Shown: piece by piece, positions 27,341-37,669 of the stretch
Layout: every line of letters starts with the position of its first letter
How positions within the stretch are numbered: the stretch's first letter is position 1
From: an uncultured Owenweeksia sp.
GTDB taxonomy: Bacteria > Bacteroidota > Bacteroidia > Flavobacteriales > Schleiferiaceae
Length of the DNA: 40,915 nt
Assembly: GCA_937146805.1 (NCBI GenBank)
Contig: CAKZRR010000050.1
Span: 1 to 40,915, forward strand
Direction: 5' to 3'
Notes under the pieces: generated by a model
What the model was told of the DNA's origin: nothing
What the model saw: the letters and a program-made list of their open reading frames with translations, nothing else
Databases searched by the model: none
Made by a program: the position numbers and the translations under genes

Positions 27341-28093
27341 ATGCAAAACGAATTAGTACAATATACCCTTAGGCTAGGCGATAACGCGTTAATTTTAGGT
27401 CAACGATTGACCGAATGGTGTGGCCATGGCCCTATTTTGGAGCAAGACATTGCCCTTTCTAATATGGCTTTAGATCAATTGGGTCAAGCCCGAATGTTGC
27501 TGCAATACGCAGCCCAACTAAAGGGAGAAGGCAGCACCGAAGATGCGTTGGCCTTTTTTAGACAAGAGGGTGAATTTAGAAATTTATTGTTGCTGGAGCT
27601 GGAAAATGGCGACTGGGGAAAGACCATAGCACGTCAGTTTTTGTTTGATACTTTCAACTACTTTCAATACACAGCTTTGCTTCAAAGTGAGGATGAAACC
27701 CTTCGCGCTATAGCGCAAAAAGCGATTAAAGAAGTTACTTACCACGCCCAGTGGAGTGCCGAGTGGGTAATACGCTTAGGCGATGGCACCGATGAAAGTC
27801 ATAAACGAATACAAGAGGCCGTGGACAGCCTTTGGGAATGGGCCAACGAAATGTTTGTGGCCGATGCCGTGGATGAGCTAATGTTGGAAAAGGGCATAGG
27901 GGTAAACCTAACCGAAATACATGCGCTTTGGGAAGAAAAAGTGGCGCAAGTATTGGCCATGGCTACTTTGCAAATGCCTGCCGAAACTTGGGCACAAACG
28001 GGAGGTAAACAAGGAGACCACACAGAGAGTTTGGGCTTTTTATTGGCTGAAATGCAATCGTTACCTAGAACGTATCCAGAAGCTAAGTGGTAA
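27341..28093 (+). CDS. paaC: 1,2-phenylacetyl-CoA epoxidase structural subunit PaaC
   Basis: A 250-residue ferritin-like partner of PaaA that stabilises the catalytic subunit but does not bind a functional diiron centre. Characteristic blocks: LRLGDNALILGQRLTEWCGH, LSNMALDQLGQARMLLQYAA, FLFDTFNYFQYTALL, KEVTYHAQWSAEWVIRLGDG and, at the end, GDHTESLGFLLAEMQSLPRTYP. Length agrees with PaaC of other bacteria (about 248). It overlaps the following leucine-rich-repeat gene by 7 nt, so that gene is translated in the same transcript. Confidence 0.95.
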   Translation: MQNELVQYTLRLGDNALILGQRLTEWCGHGPILEQDIALSNMALDQLGQARMLLQYAAQLKGEGSTEDALAFFRQEGEFRNLLLLELENGDWGKTIARQFLFDTFNYFQYTALLQSEDETLRAIAQKAIKEVTYHAQWSAEWVIRLGDGTDESHKRIQEAVDSLWEWANEMFVADAVDELMLEKGIGVNLTEIHALWEEKVAQVLAMATLQMPAETWAQTGGKQGDHTESLGFLLAEMQSLPRTYPEAKW

Positions 28094-28851
28094 AAAAGCA
28101 AGGTATAGCGACCATTGCAAGTGCCATTTTTTTGCTGTTAATGCTTAGTACCTGTGGTATAAAACACAAAAACTTTGAAAAGGCTTTATCCGAACCTTAC
28201 GGAGTAGAAAAGCTGAATTTGAGCAAACAAAAATTAGGGCAGTTGCCTCAAGGTTTGGCCCGCCTCACACAACTTAAAGAGCTTAAATTATTTAAGTGCA
28301 ACCTACAAGAACTGGACGCCCAAATTGGGGAACTGGACAGTTTAGAGTACCTCAGCGTAGGCGGCAATAATTTGCAGTATTTGCCCAAAGAGTTAACCAA
28401 ACTTACCAAGCTAAAGGTGCTGTTGTTACCTTACAACCAGTTGGATAGCTTACCCGGTTTTATTGGTGATATGCGAAATTTGGAAAGATTAGATTTGAGC
28501 CATAACAACTTAAAAACCATACCACAAGAGGTGTTTTCTTTGCCCAATTTAAAATTTTTACGTCTTTCCTATAATCAGTTAGAGGAGCTTCCTTTTGGGA
28601 TTGAGTTTTTGGATCAACTAGAGATTTTAGACCTATCAAGAAATCGCTTGAAAAAGCTACCCGAAGGGCTGGAAAGGTTACCCAAAATACTAAGCTTGAA
28701 CATAGCTTACTGCGGCACCGATGTAAATGTGCCGGAGGGTTTGTGTAACTCCTCTACGTTAGAACATTTGTCGGTGGGCGCGAATTCGGTGGTGCCCAGC
28801 TGTTTTGCCGTGCCGGGTAACAGGCAACTTCAAATAACCTTAGTTCCTTAA
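28087..28851 (+). CDS. Leucine-rich-repeat lipoprotein within the paa operon
   Basis: A 254-residue lipoprotein, with a signal ending LLLMLSTC that provides the lipidated cysteine. About eight 23-residue leucine-rich repeats follow, of the SDS22-like/bacterial type (LxxLxxLxLxxNxLxxLPxx), for example LERLDLSHNNLKTIPQEV. The start is GTG at 28087, overlapping the paaC stop by 7 nt. No catalytic motif. LRR lipoproteins usually bind proteins at the cell surface or in the periplasm. Why it sits between paaC and paaD is unexplained. Four bases separate it from the next lipoprotein gene, so the two look like a functional pair. Confidence 0.85.
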   Translation: MVKKQGIATIASAIFLLLMLSTCGIKHKNFEKALSEPYGVEKLNLSKQKLGQLPQGLARLTQLKELKLFKCNLQELDAQIGELDSLEYLSVGGNNLQYLPKELTKLTKLKVLLLPYNQLDSLPGFIGDMRNLERLDLSHNNLKTIPQEVFSLPNLKFLRLSYNQLEELPFGIEFLDQLEILDLSRNRLKKLPEGLERLPKILSLNIAYCGTDVNVPEGLCNSSTLEHLSVGANSVVPSCFAVPGNRQLQITLVP

Positions 28852-28855
28852 TAGT

Positions 28856-30040
28856 ATGAGAAATTTTTCAAGGGTAATTATGGTTTGTTTGACACTGGTA
28901 TTAGGTGCCTGTGGGCACAGTTACTTTGGCAAAGGATACTTGGAAAAGCCAGCCGAAAAAGTGGTAAGCGATAGTATTTGGATGGACGAGGGCTTGGTGT
29001 TTATTAGAGCCCGCGTAAACGGAGTAGAAGGCAATTTTTTGATAGACAATGGTTTTTCGTCAAGCGGAATGGACGCTGCGTTTATGAAGAAATGCCAGCT
29101 TAAGTTTAAGGGGCAAAGTGGAGCCACCGATGCCAACAACCAAAAGGTAAGTTTGGCCAAAGGAAAAGTAAGGGATATTGAAATTGCCGGATTTCATTTT
29201 AAAAAAACAAAGGCCTATCAAATAGATACCAAAGTGTTTTTTCCTTGCTATTCGGTAGATGGCGTTATTGGCGCTTCCATAATAAATAAAGCCAATTGGC
29301 ATTTCAATTTTAAGGCAAAAAAGCTGCGTATTTCTACCGAACCTTTTGAATTAGACGGGCAAAAAATTCCGGCTATTTATTACAGCAACAATAGAGCAGG
29401 ATTGCCTTTGCGTATAAAAGGCATCGAAGTAAATTGCAGAGTAGATTTAGGAATGAGTGCAGCTATGAAATTACGAATGCGCGATTTTAAAACCGCTCTA
29501 CAAGGCGAAGAGGCAAAGTTTATTTTGGGCTCTACCTCCATATCGGTGGGCGGTTTGGCCAAACCCGATACGGTAATTGAAACCAAAGAAGCTTTTCCAA
29601 TTTATAATGGAGATGAAAAGCTGGAAGAACCCACTCAAATACGTCTTCAAAAAAAAATAAAGTACCCCGCTACCGTGGGTATGGGTTACCTTAAACGGTA
29701 TGAGTTGGTGATAAACACGGATAATAGTGAGTACATTTTAAAACCACAAAGCAAGTCAGCGGCTGAGGTAAAAGGTTACAGTGCAGGCTTGTATCACAAA
29801 AAGGGACAGGTAGTATTGGTTGCCACCACGATGGGTAGTTCGTATTCGCTGCCGCTGGAAGTGGGCGATACTGTTAACAGCATTAATGGGCTTTCGGCAG
29901 ATTCTATTATGGACATTTGTGATTTAAAAAGTGCGCTGCAAAAACATAAAAAGCAAGAGGACAGCCTTAGCTTGGAAATAAAAGGAAAAGGCCGGATTAT
30001 TTTGCCTTTTGAAGAACCTATTTATTTGGCCATACCATGA
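28856..30040 (+). CDS. Retropepsin-like aspartic protease/PDZ lipoprotein
   Basis: A 394-residue lipoprotein (lipobox LVLGAC). Two tandem beta-lobes have the retropepsin layout. The first carries FLIDNGFSSSGMD at about residue 62-74, where D-N-G replaces the usual D-T/S-G. The second carries CRVDLGMSAAMKL, with D-L-G. A PDZ domain ends the protein (EVGDTVNSINGLSADSIMD). It could be a single-chain aspartic protease with altered motifs, or a catalytically weak binding protein. The stop overlaps the paaD ATG by 4 nt (ATGA), so it is locked into the paa transcript. Periplasmic or outer-membrane anchored, hence not an obvious partner of cytoplasmic PaaA-E. Confidence 0.78.
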   Translation: MRNFSRVIMVCLTLVLGACGHSYFGKGYLEKPAEKVVSDSIWMDEGLVFIRARVNGVEGNFLIDNGFSSSGMDAAFMKKCQLKFKGQSGATDANNQKVSLAKGKVRDIEIAGFHFKKTKAYQIDTKVFFPCYSVDGVIGASIINKANWHFNFKAKKLRISTEPFELDGQKIPAIYYSNNRAGLPLRIKGIEVNCRVDLGMSAAMKLRMRDFKTALQGEEAKFILGSTSISVGGLAKPDTVIETKEAFPIYNGDEKLEEPTQIRLQKKIKYPATVGMGYLKRYELVINTDNSEYILKPQSKSAAEVKGYSAGLYHKKGQVVLVATTMGSSYSLPLEVGDTVNSINGLSADSIMDICDLKSALQKHKKQEDSLSLEIKGKGRIILPFEEPIYLAIP

Positions 30041-30528
30041 AACAGTACAGCGAAAAGGAAATTTGGGAAATGTTAGTTTCCGTTCCCGATCCCGAAATTC
30101 CGGCCCTATCGGTATTGGATTTAGGCATAGTGCGCGAGGTAGTTTTAACGGGAGAACAAACGCTTATTAAAATTACGCCTACCTATAGTGGTTGCCCCGC
30201 GATGAAGGAAATTGAAGAAAATATTCTTAAAGAACTACAGGCCCAAGGAATTGACAACGCAGTAGTAGAGACGATTTTATCACCTCCTTGGACAACCGAT
30301 TGGATGACCGAAGAAGGCAAAGAAAAATTGCGAAAATTTGGTATCGCTCCACCTGAAGGAAGCTCGGCAGATAAATCCGTATTGTTTGGTGAAGCCAAAA
30401 AAGTAACCTGCCCGTATTGCCAATCGCGTAACACGCAAATGGTAAGCCAGTTTGGATCTACCGCCTGTAAATCGCTGTATAAGTGCGAAGACTGTTTAGA
30501 GCCTTTTGATTATTTTAAGTGTTTGTGA
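30037..30528 (+). CDS. paaD: Phenylacetyl-CoA epoxidase maturation/assembly protein PaaD
   Basis: A 163-residue MIP18-family protein with a C-terminal zinc-ribbon-like region. The N-terminal domain shows the DPEIPALSVLDLGIV and YSGCPAMKEIEENI blocks typical of this family, involved in Fe-S cluster assembly. C-terminal CPYC...CKSLYKCEDC (about 127-152) gives the Cys pattern seen in PaaD. Length agrees with E. coli PaaD (about 165). It overlaps the protease gene upstream by 4 nt. It is separated from paaABC only by the two lipoprotein genes, so its transcription depends on theirs. Confidence 0.92.
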   Translation: MKQYSEKEIWEMLVSVPDPEIPALSVLDLGIVREVVLTGEQTLIKITPTYSGCPAMKEIEENILKELQAQGIDNAVVETILSPPWTTDWMTEEGKEKLRKFGIAPPEGSSADKSVLFGEAKKVTCPYCQSRNTQMVSQFGSTACKSLYKCEDCLEPFDYFKCL

Positions 30529-30551
30529 GGGTTAGGGTTTTATAACAGCAG

Positions 30552-30573
30552 AGCCACTATATTGTGGCTTTAT
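30552..30573 (+). terminator. Weak terminator-like hairpin after paaD
   Basis: AGCCAC at 30552-30557 pairs with GTGGCT at 30564-30569 around TATATT, followed by a short interrupted T run (TTTATT). It is weak, so read-through into the helicase gene 33 nt later is possible. Confidence 0.45.
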
Positions 30574-30605: not shown

Positions 30606-33317
30606 ATGATCAATTTTCCAACAGATATAACTTTTAAGTACAATTGGAGAAAGTATCAAAAGCGTGTGCTAGATGAGCTGAATGAGCACCTTGCGGATAA
30701 TCACCTTCATATTATTGCACCTCCGGGTTCAGGAAAAACGATTTTGGGATTGGAAGTGGCTATTAGGCTCAATAAACCCACTCTAATTTTTGCGCCAACT
30801 CTATCTATCAGAAATCAATGGATACAGCGGTTTTGCGATCTTTTTTTACAAGTAGAAAAAAGACCAGATTGGATTTCGCGGGATATAAAAAACCCAAAAT
30901 TTTTAACAGTCGCAACTTATCAATCGTTGCATGCAGCTTGTACAGGGGTTAGTATAAATGAAGAGTTGGAGGAAGAGGATGAAGGAGAAATCAAAATTGA
31001 AGGTAGAACAAAAACTAAAGAAATTATTGAGCTGTTAAAAGCTCAAAATATTGGAACTATAGTAGTAGATGAAGCACATCACCTAAAAAATGCGTGGTGG
31101 CAGTCTTTAACGGAGGTAAAAGCGGCTTTAAATGCCACGGTAGTTGGGCTTACAGCCACTCCGCCTTATGATGTGTCATATGCAGAATGGCAACGCTATA
31201 TCGAATTAAATGGCCCAGTTGATGCGGAGATATCCGTGCCGGAACTTGTGGTAGAAGGAGATCTTTGTCCACATCAGGATTATGTTTATTTCTCTCGTCC
31301 AACCAAGGAAGAAGCGTGTAGGATTGAAACATACCGAGAGCGAATTCAAACCTTGTTTGATGATATCAAAAAGGATAAAGCTTTAATAGAAGCCCTCGAA
31401 AAACATCCAATTTTTTCAACTCCAAAGGAGCAGTTGGACTGGATTTACAACAATCTAGAATACTACTCGGCAACACTAGTTTTTTTGAAAGCAGCGGGTA
31501 AAGAAATTACTCAAGGGCATTTAGAAATAATAGGTGACAAAAACTTTTTGGTTCCTGAACTTAGTTTTGAATGGATTGAAATACTGTTAACTTTTTATTT
31601 GTATCTCGATCAGGAAAGTTTTGGAAAATATAAAGACCACCAGGAAAAACTCATAAATAAACTTAAGAGAAACGGAGCAATGGAGAGGCGCTCTGTAAAT
31701 TTTAGATACAATCGAAAAATCAACGCATTTTTAGGTTCAAGTATTAGTAAACTTAAAAGCATTAATCAGATTGTTGATTTTGAACGGAGTCAGTTAGGGA
31801 AGGATTTACGAATGGTAATACTTACCGATTATATTCGAAAAGAATATTTGGTAAACGGCCCTAAAAATGAACTGGAACTGGACAAAATAGGTGTGATGCC
31901 AATATTTGAAAAGTTACGCAGAACTAACAAAAAGCAATTAAAAATTGGGGTTTTAACAGGTTCTTTGACTATTATTCCTGTTTCGGCCTTATCGAATTTT
32001 AAAAGCATAGCGGCAACTTATGGGGTAGAAAAAATAGCGGCAACGGCTTTGTCTTTTGATAGCGAATTTTTGGAGGTAAGTATAAATAGTAAGCTGAAGC
32101 ACGACATTGTTCATATCATCACTCAAATTTTTGAAGGGGGCCATATAGAGGTACTTATTGGCACCAAATCCTTACTTGGTGAAGGGTGGGATGCCCCTTC
32201 AATAAACGCTCTTGTTCTTGCCAGCTTTGTGGGCTCCTATGTATTGTCTAACCAAATGAGGGGACGGGCTATTAGAGCCGACAGGCAAAATCTTGAAAAA
32301 ACAGGTAATATTTGGCATTTGGTGTGTATAGATCCAAAAACCGCTGATGGTGGAGATGATCTGCAGTTATTGCAAAGACGATTCAAGGCTTTTGTTGGTG
32401 TATCGTTTCACGATGAAGATAGTATTGAAAATGGGATAGGTCGTTTGAACCTCCGAGCTAGAATATCAACAGTTAGTGATGTTAGTAAGGTTAACGATAC
32501 TATGTTAAATGCTTCTGCGGAAAGGAGTAAGCTTAAAGAAATGTGGCAGAAAGCTTTAGAAAGTGGCGACACACTAATAGAAGAGATTAAAGTACCGTTT
32601 CCGGATAATAGAAATTATAAGGAAGTAAAGTCTTTTTATTACAATCGAACCATCAAGTATTTACTAGGAGCACTTGGTTCCGGTCTAATTAGTTATGCAC
32701 TTGAAGTTCTACAAGTTTTTGGTAGAGGAGCCCGTCATATCCGTAGCAAAGAGGATGTGCAGATCTGGTTTCTGGGTGCGGGCGCGGTGGGAGTATTGCT
32801 GTTTGGCCGCTTGGCGTTTAAAACATTTAGAGCTTATGTAAAATACAGAGATATATCAAAGGATATACACAATGTGGGAGAGTCACTATTGGTATCATTA
32901 GTAAAAGTGGGAGCCATTCATACAAGCCTCGAAGAACTTAAGGTCGATTCGGCTATAGATAAGAGCGGAGCTATTTACTGTCACCTAGAAGGCGGAACAA
33001 CCTACGAGAAATCGATTTTTATTAAGTCGTTGCAAGAGGTTGTTGGCCCTGTAGAAAGCCCAAGATATTTAATGGTTCGTAAAAGCTTTTTTCTGAATCT
33101 GCTCGCTCAAAAAGATTATCACTCAGTACCAGATATAATAGGGCGTAAAAAACAGCATGCAGAGTACTTTAAAAAACAATGGGGCAAGTTTGTTGGAGAT
33201 TGCGAACTTATATACACAAGAACCATAGAGGGAAGAAAATTACTTCTTAAATCAAGAATTCAATCGTTGGCGTCAGAGTTTCAAGGCAAAACGGAAAGGA
33301 TAAATAAATGGAGGTAA
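30606..33317 (+). CDS. SF2 DEAD/DEAH helicase with a C-terminal transmembrane pair
   Basis: A 903-residue superfamily 2 ATPase. Motif I is APPGSGKT (38-45), motif Ia LIFAPTLSIRNQW, motif II DEAH (155-158), motif III GLTATPP (181-187). The second lobe has GTKSLLGEGWDAPSINAL and motif VI QMRGRAIRAD (550-559). Unusually, the C-terminal region has two hydrophobic helices (about 685-706, LLGALGSGLISYALEVLQVF, and 718-738, WFLGAGAVGVLLFGRLAF). A further ~165-residue soluble domain follows. So the enzyme is predicted to be membrane-bound with its helicase lobes in the cytoplasm. It overlaps the next small membrane gene by 10 nt. The family is widespread and unnamed to me. A defence or nucleic-acid translocation role is inference. 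Confidence 0.85.
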   Translation: MINFPTDITFKYNWRKYQKRVLDELNEHLADNHLHIIAPPGSGKTILGLEVAIRLNKPTLIFAPTLSIRNQWIQRFCDLFLQVEKRPDWISRDIKNPKFLTVATYQSLHAACTGVSINEELEEEDEGEIKIEGRTKTKEIIELLKAQNIGTIVVDEAHHLKNAWWQSLTEVKAALNATVVGLTATPPYDVSYAEWQRYIELNGPVDAEISVPELVVEGDLCPHQDYVYFSRPTKEEACRIETYRERIQTLFDDIKKDKALIEALEKHPIFSTPKEQLDWIYNNLEYYSATLVFLKAAGKEITQGHLEIIGDKNFLVPELSFEWIEILLTFYLYLDQESFGKYKDHQEKLINKLKRNGAMERRSVNFRYNRKINAFLGSSISKLKSINQIVDFERSQLGKDLRMVILTDYIRKEYLVNGPKNELELDKIGVMPIFEKLRRTNKKQLKIGVLTGSLTIIPVSALSNFKSIAATYGVEKIAATALSFDSEFLEVSINSKLKHDIVHIITQIFEGGHIEVLIGTKSLLGEGWDAPSINALVLASFVGSYVLSNQMRGRAIRADRQNLEKTGNIWHLVCIDPKTADGGDDLQLLQRRFKAFVGVSFHDEDSIENGIGRLNLRARISTVSDVSKVNDTMLNASAERSKLKEMWQKALESGDTLIEEIKVPFPDNRNYKEVKSFYYNRTIKYLLGALGSGLISYALEVLQVFGRGARHIRSKEDVQIWFLGAGAVGVLLFGRLAFKTFRAYVKYRDISKDIHNVGESLLVSLVKVGAIHTSLEELKVDSAIDKSGAIYCHLEGGTTYEKSIFIKSLQEVVGPVESPRYLMVRKSFFLNLLAQKDYHSVPDIIGRKKQHAEYFKKQWGKFVGDCELIYTRTIEGRKLLLKSRIQSLASEFQGKTERINKWR

Positions 33318-33805
33318 TTAACATAAAACCAGGCCCTCCCGTTGAGGTAACTTTCAAAGTAAAAAAAGTACCCAAGTTTATTATAGCTTGTTTGGTGGTA
33401 GCGTTAACTGGGGTTGTAATTTTACCTTTAATTGGAGTTTTTTTTGGTTTGATATATGGTAATGGCCCACATATCGGCTTTGTATTTGGTTTGTTAGTTT
33501 TTGGTCTAATAGCGCGCTTTTTGGTGCGTACCATTTGCTGGAACCTTTTTGGTTTTGAAAAGTGGATTATTAGCGAAAAGGAAATATCCTATGAAGCTGA
33601 TTACAAATATTTCAGAGGTCGGTCGGTTAAGCTAGAGAGCCCATTTACCTTAGGCTTTATTTTTCAATATGAAAACGAAAAAGACCGTGTACAGCTAACC
33701 GCGGAATCCGAAGAAAATCAAATAACCTCCGTAATTAAGATAGCCAAAAAAGATGCGCAGCATTTGGCTACCCAGCTTCCGCTTAACGTTTTCTTTTTGG
33801 ATTAA
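33308..33805 (+). CDS. Small membrane protein coupled to the helicase, PH-like C-terminus
   Basis: A 165-residue protein with two predicted transmembrane helices (about 25-50 and 53-72; FIIACLVVALTGVVILPLIG and IGFVFGLLVFGLIARFLV). A C-terminal beta-rich region (WIISEKEISYEADYKYFRGR onward) has a layout compatible with a bacterial PH-like domain. Its ATG lies 10 nt inside the helicase gene, and the pair of membrane segments mirrors the two in the helicase, so the proteins likely form a membrane complex. No enzymatic motif. The spacer that follows has a GCCAC/GTGGC foldback (about 33809-33826) but no clear T run. Confidence 0.7.
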   Translation: MEVINIKPGPPVEVTFKVKKVPKFIIACLVVALTGVVILPLIGVFFGLIYGNGPHIGFVFGLLVFGLIARFLVRTICWNLFGFEKWIISEKEISYEADYKYFRGRSVKLESPFTLGFIFQYENEKDRVQLTAESEENQITSVIKIAKKDAQHLATQLPLNVFFLD

Positions 33806-33880: not shown

Positions 33881-33888
33881 TAAATTTG
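33881..33888 (+). promoter_or_regulatory. -7 element (TAAATTTG) for the TlpA-like gene
   Basis: TAAATTTG fits TAnnTTTG, 28 bp before the ATG at 33916. It argues for the start at 33916 and against the in-frame TTG at 33886, which lies inside the -7 element. Confidence 0.6.
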
Positions 33889-33915
33889 AGAAATGTATTA
33901 CGAAAAAGCAATTCC

Positions 33916-35196
33916 ATGAAAAAGCTCCTAATTTTTACAATTCTTGTTTCAGCATTTACACTTCAAGCACAAGAAGAAACCGTAAGAGTAAAAACTGAGT
34001 TGAAATCTGGAAGAGCAGGTTATCCGGGAGGCTGGGCCTTTGCCTTCTTTAAGCAACTAAACCCGAACTCATGGGAAACATCAACCACCAGGCTAATTGG
34101 AATTCCGGAAGATTGGAATGAGTATTACCGAAAAGAAGTCCTGTTTCAAAGAAATCAATTCGTATTTCAGAATTACAAACAAGGGAATATTACCGATTCA
34201 ACGTTTACATTTCTCCTTGAAAAAAGGGGTATTGACACAATAAACAATCAATATTCTGCGGATCCAATAGCTTGTTTTAGTACTTTAATTTACCGCGATA
34301 AAGGTAATGGCAAAGTGGAGTACATGGTGGACACAGACGCTGATGGTGACTTTGCCGATGAAAAAAAACACGAGCCTTTAAAGGGTGTTGTAATCAATCG
34401 TTTAGAATCCGTCATTAAGAAAGTGCCTTATATGCAGTATGAATTATTTGTAAATAATACGACTTTGAGAGATAGCGTTCCTTTTATGGTGTTCTGTAAT
34501 GAAACAGAAAAGCATGGAAAATATCTGGCTTACAATTTTCCCGTATATGCAGAAGGTGTTTTTGGAGGTGAGACTTTCATTGTATCAGCATCTAAGGTTG
34601 ACTTTAGTAGGTTTACGGTGAGTGGGTTAAACAATGAAACCAAAACTCGAGAAGAGGAAAAAGCTAAACGTGGCGATCGGGTAAACTACTTTGGAGACTG
34701 GTATGAAATCGATTATTTTGATAGAGCTAGTATGGAGCTTGTGCTAGAGAAGGTAGACCTTGCAAGGGATAGCATCAGTCCGACTGTTGGGTTTTATGCT
34801 CCCGATTTTGAGTTTGCGGTTATGGACTCAGGGAAGGAAATGAAGCTGATTGATTTTCAAGGGAAGTATGTAATACTAGATTTTTGGGGTACATGGTGCC
34901 GACCCTGTGTGGGTGGAATTCCAGACTTGGTAAAACTACATGAAGAATTAAAAGGAGAGCCCTTCGAAATAGTATCCATTGCGGTTAAATCAAAACGCGA
35001 AGCTTTTGACACTCTAGTTGAGGAGCATGGAATGGATTGGCTTCATGCATGGGAGGCCAACAGTAGCGGAGAAATGGTGCGGCTGTATAATGTAAATAGT
35101 TTCCCCACAATAGTTTTGATCGATCCAAATGGTAAAATAATATACAGAGACTGGCAGTTAGGAGAAGTAAAGAAATTGGTTCAGGAGCGGAGGTAA
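33916..35196 (+). CDS. TlpA-family periplasmic thioredoxin-like protein
   Basis: A 426-residue exported protein (signal MKKLLIFTILVSAFTLQAQ). The first ~290 residues are a beta-rich domain not recognised. It is followed by a thioredoxin fold of the TlpA/ResA type: ILDFWGTWCRPC (W327-C328-R-P-C331) with the later cis-proline NSFPTIVLIDP. The CxxC implies a disulfide reductase role in the periplasm, perhaps cytochrome maturation or thiol repair. The N-terminal part may carry substrate binding. It is convergent with a T9SS gene (30-nt gap) and seems unrelated to the paa pathway. Confidence 0.85.
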   Translation: MKKLLIFTILVSAFTLQAQEETVRVKTELKSGRAGYPGGWAFAFFKQLNPNSWETSTTRLIGIPEDWNEYYRKEVLFQRNQFVFQNYKQGNITDSTFTFLLEKRGIDTINNQYSADPIACFSTLIYRDKGNGKVEYMVDTDADGDFADEKKHEPLKGVVINRLESVIKKVPYMQYELFVNNTTLRDSVPFMVFCNETEKHGKYLAYNFPVYAEGVFGGETFIVSASKVDFSRFTVSGLNNETKTREEEKAKRGDRVNYFGDWYEIDYFDRASMELVLEKVDLARDSISPTVGFYAPDFEFAVMDSGKEMKLIDFQGKYVILDFWGTWCRPCVGGIPDLVKLHEELKGEPFEIVSIAVKSKREAFDTLVEEHGMDWLHAWEANSSGEMVRLYNVNSFPTIVLIDPNGKIIYRDWQLGEVKKLVQERR

Positions 35197-37294: not shown

Positions 37295-37669
37295 ATGAAA
37301 ACCTTTAAGGATTTAAACTGCTGGAAGGAGGCGCGCATTTTTAGACAGATGTGTTTTGAATTAGTGAAGAAGTTTCCGGCCGAGGAAAAGTATAGGTTAA
37401 TCGATCAACTCATTCGAAGTTCTAGAGGAATATGTGCTGCAATTGCTGAAGGCCACGGTAGGTTTCACTATCAAGAAAATATTCAGTATTGCCGAATTGC
37501 AAGAGGTTCGTTAGAAGAATCTTTGGATCATCTTATGGTTGCTTGGGAATGTGAGTATATCGAAAAGGATGAGTTTGAAAAGTATGGGAAGCAACATGAA
37601 ACAATATTGGCTTTATTAAATGGATATATTTCGTATCTCAAAAAACGGAAGAGTGGCGAAACCAATTAA
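37295..37669 (+). CDS. Four-helix-bundle (23S rRNA intervening-sequence-type) protein
   Basis: A 124-residue protein of the family found both in 23S rRNA intervening sequences and as stand-alone genes. Family signatures: DLNCWKEARIFRQMCFELVKKF at the start, RLIDQLIRSSRGICAAIAEG in the second helix, and ARGSLEESLDHLMVA in the third. It is related in fold to Avd of diversity-generating retroelements, which packs as a pentamer, but no reverse transcriptase is near. Flanking near-identical 18-bp repeats suggest it is a small mobile-like insert between paaG and paaH. Function of free-standing copies is unknown. The start at 37295 gives a normal family length. Confidence 0.9.
   Translation: MKTFKDLNCWKEARIFRQMCFELVKKFPAEEKYRLIDQLIRSSRGICAAIAEGHGRFHYQENIQYCRIARGSLEESLDHLMVAWECEYIEKDEFEKYGKQHETILALLNGYISYLKKRKSGETN

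What the first reader, a model, noticed from the sequence alone, without database searches (positions are those of the whole stretch)
30606..33805. Membrane-anchored SF2 helicase with a two-helix partner: candidate uncharacterised system
A full SF2 helicase carries two transmembrane helices and a ~165-residue tail at the C-terminus, and overlaps by 10 nt a small protein with two transmembrane helices and a PH-like end. Helicases bound to the membrane are rare outside secretion or DNA uptake and defence. The pair lies amid paa genes, a place where cargo islands often insert. No nuclease or methyltransferase is beside it.
Basis: inference. Interest (0 to 1): 0.75.

Follow-up and report, generated by a model that had tools for sequence, protein, structure and literature searches.

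The report
Solitary membrane-tethered helicase, no fixed partner
A rare helicase-like motor protein, probably tethered to the bacterial membrane, that comes and goes between species on its own; the small membrane protein next to it appears to be a neighbour by place rather than a partner.

Summary
The open reading frames are as described: an SF2 helicase (HEL, 30606-33317, 903 aa) overlapping by 10 nt a 165-aa two-helix protein (SMALL, 33308-33805). Helicase motifs are intact. HEL's two hydrophobic segments are borderline in this protein alone, but lie in two long predicted helices and recur across the family; I put a real membrane hairpin at about 0.75. The C-terminal ~155 residues form a domain with no match found; in 296 genomes of the phylum its profile hits only the 10 that hold this helicase. 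The two-gene 'system' is not supported: no SMALL relative was found at 83 other HEL loci (78 with at least 600 nt downstream), and in a same-genus genome a SMALL relative follows paaD with no helicase. HEL is an accessory gene (36 of 118 and 29 of 68 species in two genera), under purifying selection, with varied neighbours and some broken copies. Its function was not established. Best guess: a double-strand translocase at the inner membrane acting against incoming DNA or phage (about 0.4), with accessory DNA repair as main rival; defence-gene neighbourhood is inconclusive. New variant of a known kind, moderate interest.

The parts
30606..33317 (+). HEL: SF2 helicase, 903 aa, predicted membrane hairpin and C-terminal domain
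   Evidence: ORF; Pfam ResIII; XPB-like by sequence and fold
30606..31301 (+). RecA-like domain 1 (residues 1-232) with APPGSGKT, DEAH and TAT motifs
   Evidence: invariant columns in the 40-row alignment; motif names recalled; domain borders from the model
31302..31739 (+). helical insert between the two RecA domains (residues 233-378)
   Evidence: AlphaFold secondary structure; mean pairwise identity 0.36
31740..32405 (+). RecA-like domain 2 (residues 379-600) with GEGWDAP and QMRGRxIR motifs
   Evidence: invariant columns
32616..32732 (+). long helix 1 (residues 671-709), hydrophobic core about 685-704: candidate transmembrane helix 1
32748..32843 (+). long helix 2 (residues 715-746), hydrophobic core about 718-740: candidate transmembrane helix 2
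32844..33314 (+). C-terminal alpha/beta domain (residues 747-903)
   Evidence: predicted alone (from residue 745) at mean pLDDT 84; its profile hits the same 10 of 296 genomes as the helicase; no reliable fold match
33308..33805 (+). SMALL: 165-aa protein, two strong hydrophobic segments; most likely a gene of the paa site, not a conserved partner
30550..30571 (+). terminator-like hairpin between paaD and HEL (8 pairs)
   Evidence: scan found 6 sites against 3.7 (sd 2.1) expected, so one site is weak evidence; fold z -2.25, 3 of 200 shuffles as good
30037..30528 (+). paaD, left neighbour of the site
   Evidence: TIGR02159 E 9.9e-60
33886..35196 (+). thioredoxin-domain protein; its relative directly follows paaD in same-genus genome G002
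   Evidence: Pfam; L113

Best explanation
HEL is a solitary, apparently self-sufficient accessory gene. It encodes an XPB/Hef-like SF2 motor (two RecA domains, helical insert), a hydrophobic helix hairpin that holds it at the inner membrane with both ends in the cytosol, and a C-terminal domain seen only with this helicase. I propose that it binds and moves along double-stranded nucleic acid under the membrane, with the C-terminal domain recognising the substrate or passing on a signal, and that it serves against incoming mobile DNA or phage. Shown: conserved motifs, purifying selection, patchy presence, no fixed partner found. Predicted: membrane hairpin (about 0.75), double-strand translocation (about 0.7). 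Inferred only: defence (about 0.4). SMALL is a bystander of the paaD site (about 0.85).
For: Helicase-motif columns invariant in 40 of 40 aligned rows. dN/dS 0.05-0.14 in the core of 7 close pairs (an eighth was saturated), 0.05-0.13 in the tail and 0.05-0.26 in the hairpin of 8 pairs. Helices 671-709 and 715-746; both segments reach KD 1.3 in 64 of 77 homologues, KD 1.6 in 32 of 77; mean flank charges: N +1.8, loop +0.9, C +3.9; KD 2.62/2.27 in a faecal contig, 1.99/1.57 in Paenibacillus, 1.85/1.99 in a Desulfobacteraceae copy. Patchy: 3 of 99 relatives, own genome included (two hits of 61-69 residues dropped), 10 of 296 in the phylum, own included, 36 of 118 and 29 of 68 species of two genera. 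Mixed tree: the window copy is nearest by path to Algibacter (73% identity) and Fulvivirga, while the same-family copy L002 falls among Flavobacterium, Pontibacter and Pedobacter (quick tree). Same-strand upstream genes within 150 nt at 46 loci fall into 21 groups (one is a fragment of a split HEL); only two groups recur, each within one family of bacteria. Neighbour proteins match 27 PADLOC families against 6 in a control, 145 proteins each.
Against: The PADLOC excess is not clean: 13 of the 25 families shown are Argonaute-type models matched by one member each, probably one protein; others are generic (WYL, subtilase, TPR), the tally does not count distinct proteins, and the control holds redundant paa genes; of ten large neighbours scanned singly two had a hit, both generic. 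The 25 of 183 Pfam families listed for the neighbours are largely metabolic, regulatory or structural. No relative was confirmed in viral contigs. In two genera the gene keeps one site, which suits a physiological role too. HEL's own hydrophobicity is borderline; two RecA stretches are about as hydrophobic in the family, and in Paenibacillus one (KD 2.08) outscores both segments. Two Rhodobacterales plasmid copies lack the hairpin but keep the tail, so tethering is not essential to the family.
Confidence: 0.4

Rival explanations
1. HEL is an accessory DNA-repair or genome-maintenance helicase (RadD/XPB-like work) that happens to sit at the membrane.
For: Closest by sequence is XPB, by fold XPB and Hef/FANCM-type enzymes; in the genus of the Chryseobacterium soldanellicola copy it adjoins a uracil-DNA-glycosylase-family gene in 36 of 36 genomes that have HEL (35 upstream, 1 downstream, family); it forms one clade in Weeksellaceae (25 rows) and one of 21 Flavobacteriaceae rows.
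Against: The glycosylase gene is in 113 of 118 genomes, the helicase in 36, so adjacency may be one old insertion; other lineages show other neighbours; several copies are broken; repair gives no evident reason for a membrane hairpin (inference).
Confidence: 0.3
2. The hydrophobic segments are buried or surface helices of a soluble domain, and HEL is a cytosolic helicase.
For: KD only 1.48/1.84 in the window protein; 467 of 2000 shuffles give such a pair; two RecA stretches are about as hydrophobic; pLDDT of the pair is 56-73 by blocks of ten; Rhodobacterales copies do without it; the loop carries a mean charge of +0.9.
Against: Helices of 39 and 32 residues, hydrophobic moment 0.14-0.20, least conserved stretch (identity 0.26) that stays hydrophobic, stronger segments in some distant relatives.
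Confidence: 0.22
3. HEL works in natural DNA uptake at the membrane, like ComFA (recalled).
For: Membrane position and a double-strand motor would fit; inference only.
Against: No competence family among the 25 of 183 Pfam families listed for 145 neighbours; absent from 96 of 99 relatives.
Confidence: 0.06
4. HEL and SMALL are a true two-gene system, recent in this lineage.
For: The 10-nt overlap would allow translational coupling; a terminator-like hairpin precedes HEL; the three closest HEL relatives could not be checked properly for lack of downstream sequence.
Against: No SMALL relative at 83 other HEL loci, 78 of them with at least 600 nt downstream; a SMALL relative follows paaD without a helicase in G001.
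Confidence: 0.06

Closest known systems
XPB / Ssl2-like and Hef/FANCM-like SF2 translocases
   Same: two RecA domains and motifs; XPB in yeast TFIIH (7o4l) Z 19.0, rmsd 4.0 over 381 residues; Hef Z 16.9, rmsd 6.6 over 399
   Different: 44 bits against a cut-off of 610 for the XPB model; a hydrophobic helix pair and a C-terminal domain that these structures did not cover (matches mostly end near residue 640)
RIG-I-like receptors (LGP2, MDA5, RIG-I)
   Same: top Foldseek hits by E-value (LGP2 2.3e-15, 13% identity, TM-score 0.29 by query length); helical insert between the RecA domains (likeness of the insert recalled)
   Different: no CARD or receptor C-terminal family hit in Pfam; bacterial; probable membrane hairpin
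Defence helicases Hna, Hachiman HamAB and DdmDE
   Same: SF2-type helicases of accessory defence loci (start of abstract of PMC13381803 in the listing; passages of PMC12278908, and PMC12409362)
   Different: Hachiman and DdmDE act with a nuclease, Hna as helicase-nuclease (recalled); no nuclease family was hit here, though the tail's fold is unassigned
RadD
   Same: bacterial SF2 enzyme in genome maintenance (starts of abstracts in listing)
   Different: RadD has a zinc ribbon (PMC9049331, abstract start); HEL has seven cysteines and no CxxC or CxC

Membership tests
SF2 helicase | Walker A, DEAH, TAT, GEGWDAP and QMRGRxIR motifs | tested here: met
   invariant in 40 of 40 rows; motif names recalled
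XPB DNA repair helicase (NF045503) | score above the curated cut-off | tested here: not met
   44.2 bits against 610, residues 11-185 only
RIG-I-like receptors | helical insert plus RNA-binding C-terminal domain | tested here: inconclusive
   helicase part matches; the tail alone had no reliable match
Hna-type helicase-nuclease | nuclease domain on the same chain | tested here: inconclusive
   no nuclease family in Pfam at E up to 1, but the tail's fold is unassigned
Hachiman | adjacent HamA (DUF1837) gene | tested here: not met
   the neighbouring genes scanned hit other families or none
RadD | zinc ribbon | tested here: not met
   no CxxC or CxC in the 903 residues
Known defence gene family (PADLOC) | full-length match to a model | tested here: not met
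   best PbeA E 4.8e-10, 36.7 bits, HEL residues 11-264 of 903
Defence-island gene | enrichment of defence genes next to it | tested here: inconclusive
   27 against 6 PADLOC families, 145 proteins each; overlapping models and redundant control
Conserved HEL-SMALL operon | SMALL relative beside HEL elsewhere | tested here: not met
   0 of 83 other loci, 5 of them with under 600 nt downstream
Integral membrane protein | experimentally shown insertion | not testable with these tools
   prediction only

The most novel reading that the evidence does not exclude
A one-gene immune sensor: a membrane-anchored, XPB/RIG-I-like double-strand motor that surveys nucleic acid entering at the inner membrane and acts through its membrane hairpin and a new C-terminal domain (for example by membrane leakage or by stalling injection), without any nuclease or partner.
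Probability: 0.2. Interest if true: 0.85.

Novelty: new variant of a known kind. Interest (0 to 1): 0.45.

Why it matters
A helicase tied to the membrane by its own helices would be unusual. This family keeps its C-terminal domain in copies from Bacteroidota, a Paenibacillus plasmid and a Desulfobacteraceae genome, while within genera some species have it, some lack it and some hold broken copies. Finding out what it acts on would add either a partner-free defence protein or a membrane-bound repair motor to the catalogue. It also warns against reading an overlapping gene pair in one genome as a system: here the overlap may be an accident of the insertion site.

Tried and rejected
Two-gene system: not supported. 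BLASTP and a profile HMM (next best E 0.24) found no SMALL relative at 83 other HEL loci, and a same-genus genome has SMALL's relative after paaD without HEL. A same-strand gene of up to 250 aa with two or more hydrophobic segments lies within 200 nt downstream in 2 of 81 loci, window included; the other (L012, 104 aa) was not among the SMALL hits printed.

Upstream partner: a glycosylase-family gene precedes HEL in one group of 25 loci, but is in 113 of 118 genomes of that genus with or without HEL. Other close upstream genes tested hit unrelated families or none. In two Rhodobacterales plasmids a helical gene without Pfam hit overlaps HEL's start and is 60% identical between them; not followed further.

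Mobile element: no flanking repeats that point to one, no tRNA in the window, no integrase or transposase among the window genes scanned (not all ORFs were scanned). Phage origin: two 'Bacteriophage sp.' records matched; the one opened carries a NUDIX gene and transporter-like genes (by eye) and looks bacterial; the other was not opened. In viral contigs 62 pattern matches gave no confirmed relative.

Tail: in Pfam only single-member hits, best E 0.007; PDB sequences best E 0.15; Foldseek best E 0.16, VIA best Z 3.1 with 26 of 997 chains at Z 2 or more. RIG-I-like receptors, first by Foldseek E-value, are not among the 50 VIA entries shown, where XPB leads; that does not exclude them. The whole-model searches test the helicase part only.

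Literature: searches listed no paper that I recognised as describing a membrane-anchored helicase of this kind. I saw listings with starts of abstracts (20 of 902, 8 of 50, 6 of 9) and passages of three papers: PMC12409362, PMC12278908, PMC12458937 (the last has no 'transmembrane'). The library holds open-licence papers only, so this does not show that none exists. One search on paa clusters was not used.
Full report
What is there. HEL (30606-33317, 903 aa) and SMALL (33308-33805, 165 aa) are at the stated coordinates and share 10 nt. HEL matches ResIII (E 4.6e-22) and, below cut-off, Helicase_C, weakly the XPB model (44 bits, cut-off 610) and XPB structures. To the left lie paaC, an LRR protein, an aspartyl-protease-like protein and paaD; to the right a thioredoxin-domain protein, a secreted protein and a paaG-like gene.

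The membrane question. In HEL the two segments score KD 1.48 and 1.84, and 467 of 2000 shuffles of the protein contain such a pair, so the window protein alone does not decide it. Two RecA stretches are about as hydrophobic across the family. What favours a hairpin is the setting: AlphaFold (40 sequences, mean pLDDT 82) places the segments in helices of 39 and 32 residues, 671-709 and 715-746, at moderate confidence. Both segments reach KD 1.3 in 64 of 77 homologues and KD 1.6 in 32 of 77, although this is the least conserved stretch (mean identity 0.26 against 0.56-0.59 in the RecA domains and 0.43 in the tail). Hydrophobic moments are 0.14-0.20 and the C-flank is strongly positive. A human faecal contig has plainly stronger segments (2.62, 2.27); a Paenibacillus copy has 1.99 and 1.57, with one RecA stretch at 2.08 above both; a Desulfobacteraceae copy has 1.85 and 1.99. 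Against it, two Rhodobacterales plasmid copies lack the hairpin while keeping the tail, and the loop is slightly positive. I put a real membrane hairpin at about 0.75.

The tail. Predicted alone with 30 sequences it is an alpha/beta domain (mean pLDDT 84, last ten residues low) with eight invariant positions. No reliable family or fold match was found. In 296 genomes of the phylum its profile hits exactly the 10 genomes that the whole-protein profile hits.

The partner. SMALL has relatives in 11 of 98 other genomes near the window's, some of them weak. In the same-genus draft genome G001 the only match lies directly after paaD, on the same strand, 25-27% identical, and no HEL was found there. 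In G002 paaD is followed directly by the thioredoxin gene, and neither HEL nor SMALL was found in that genome. No SMALL relative was found at 83 other HEL loci (BLASTP; profile HMM). Five of these have under 600 nt downstream, among them the closest relatives L007, L009 and L023, and three loci are one gene. The simplest history is insertion of HEL between paaD and a SMALL gene already there; loss of HEL in G001 cannot be excluded. A terminator-like hairpin lies between paaD and HEL.

Spread. HEL is in 3 of 99 relatives, own genome included (two further hits of 61-69 residues dropped), 10 of 296 genomes of the phylum, and 1 of 247 genomes of the Desulfobacteraceae copy's phylum, that copy itself. 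One scan of species genomes found 149 coding relatives, 80 kept. In two genera, those of a Chryseobacterium and a Winogradskyella copy, it is in 36 of 118 sampled and 29 of 68 genomes; some copies are split or carry stops. The tree mixes families: the window copy is nearest by path to Algibacter (73% identity) and Fulvivirga, whereas a same-family copy falls among Flavobacterium, Pontibacter and Pedobacter (quick tree, several forks open, long branches flagged). dN/dS of 0.05-0.14 in the core of seven pairs shows purifying selection.

Context. Same-strand genes close upstream at 46 loci fall into 21 groups, one of them a fragment of a split HEL. In one genus HEL adjoins a glycosylase-family gene in 36 of 36 cases, but that gene is in 113 of 118 genomes. 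The 25 of 183 Pfam families listed for 145 neighbour proteins are largely metabolic, regulatory or structural. The neighbours match 27 PADLOC families against 6 for 145 control proteins. Thirteen of the 25 shown are Argonaute-type models with one member each, so at least one locus has an Argonaute neighbour, but the number of distinct defence proteins is unknown; the control contains redundant paa genes; and of ten large neighbours scanned singly two had hits, both generic. I treat this as inconclusive.

Reading. HEL looks like a self-sufficient accessory motor, probably at the membrane. Defence against incoming DNA or phage fits its solitary, patchy and sometimes broken state best in my judgement; repair fits the XPB kinship and the retention in two genera. 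Neither was tested. No model in the protein libraries searched covers the whole protein, and the literature searches listed no description that I recognised (open-licence papers, listings only in part).

Noticed in passing
window 28087-30040 and relatives L111-L117: The intervals between paaC, paaD and paaG differ in gene content from species to species (LRR protein, aspartyl-protease-like protein, SMALL, thioredoxin-domain protein and others), so this catabolic cluster is a variable site in the family.
   Followed up: partly
window 37295-37669: A 23S rRNA-intervening-sequence-type protein gene lies inside the paa cluster; a relative sits in the same place in same-genus genome G002.
   Followed up: no
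L132:7540-7977 and L130:7612-7977: In two Rhodobacterales plasmids a small helical gene without Pfam hit overlaps the start of a hairpin-less HEL relative by 4 nt and is 60% identical between them; a possible true partner in that lineage.
   Followed up: partly
L131 (MT836806.1): A record labelled 'Bacteriophage sp.' with a HEL relative looks like bacterial DNA (NUDIX gene, transporter-like genes by eye); it may be mislabelled.
   Followed up: partly
L003/L070 (Phaeocystidibacter luteus), L023, G651, G678, G784, G814: HEL copies split or interrupted by stops, pointing to repeated inactivation (some may be sequencing errors).
   Followed up: no
L033 6503-7273: In this Chryseobacterium locus a DUF4241 gene precedes the glycosylase-family gene upstream of HEL.
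   Followed up: no
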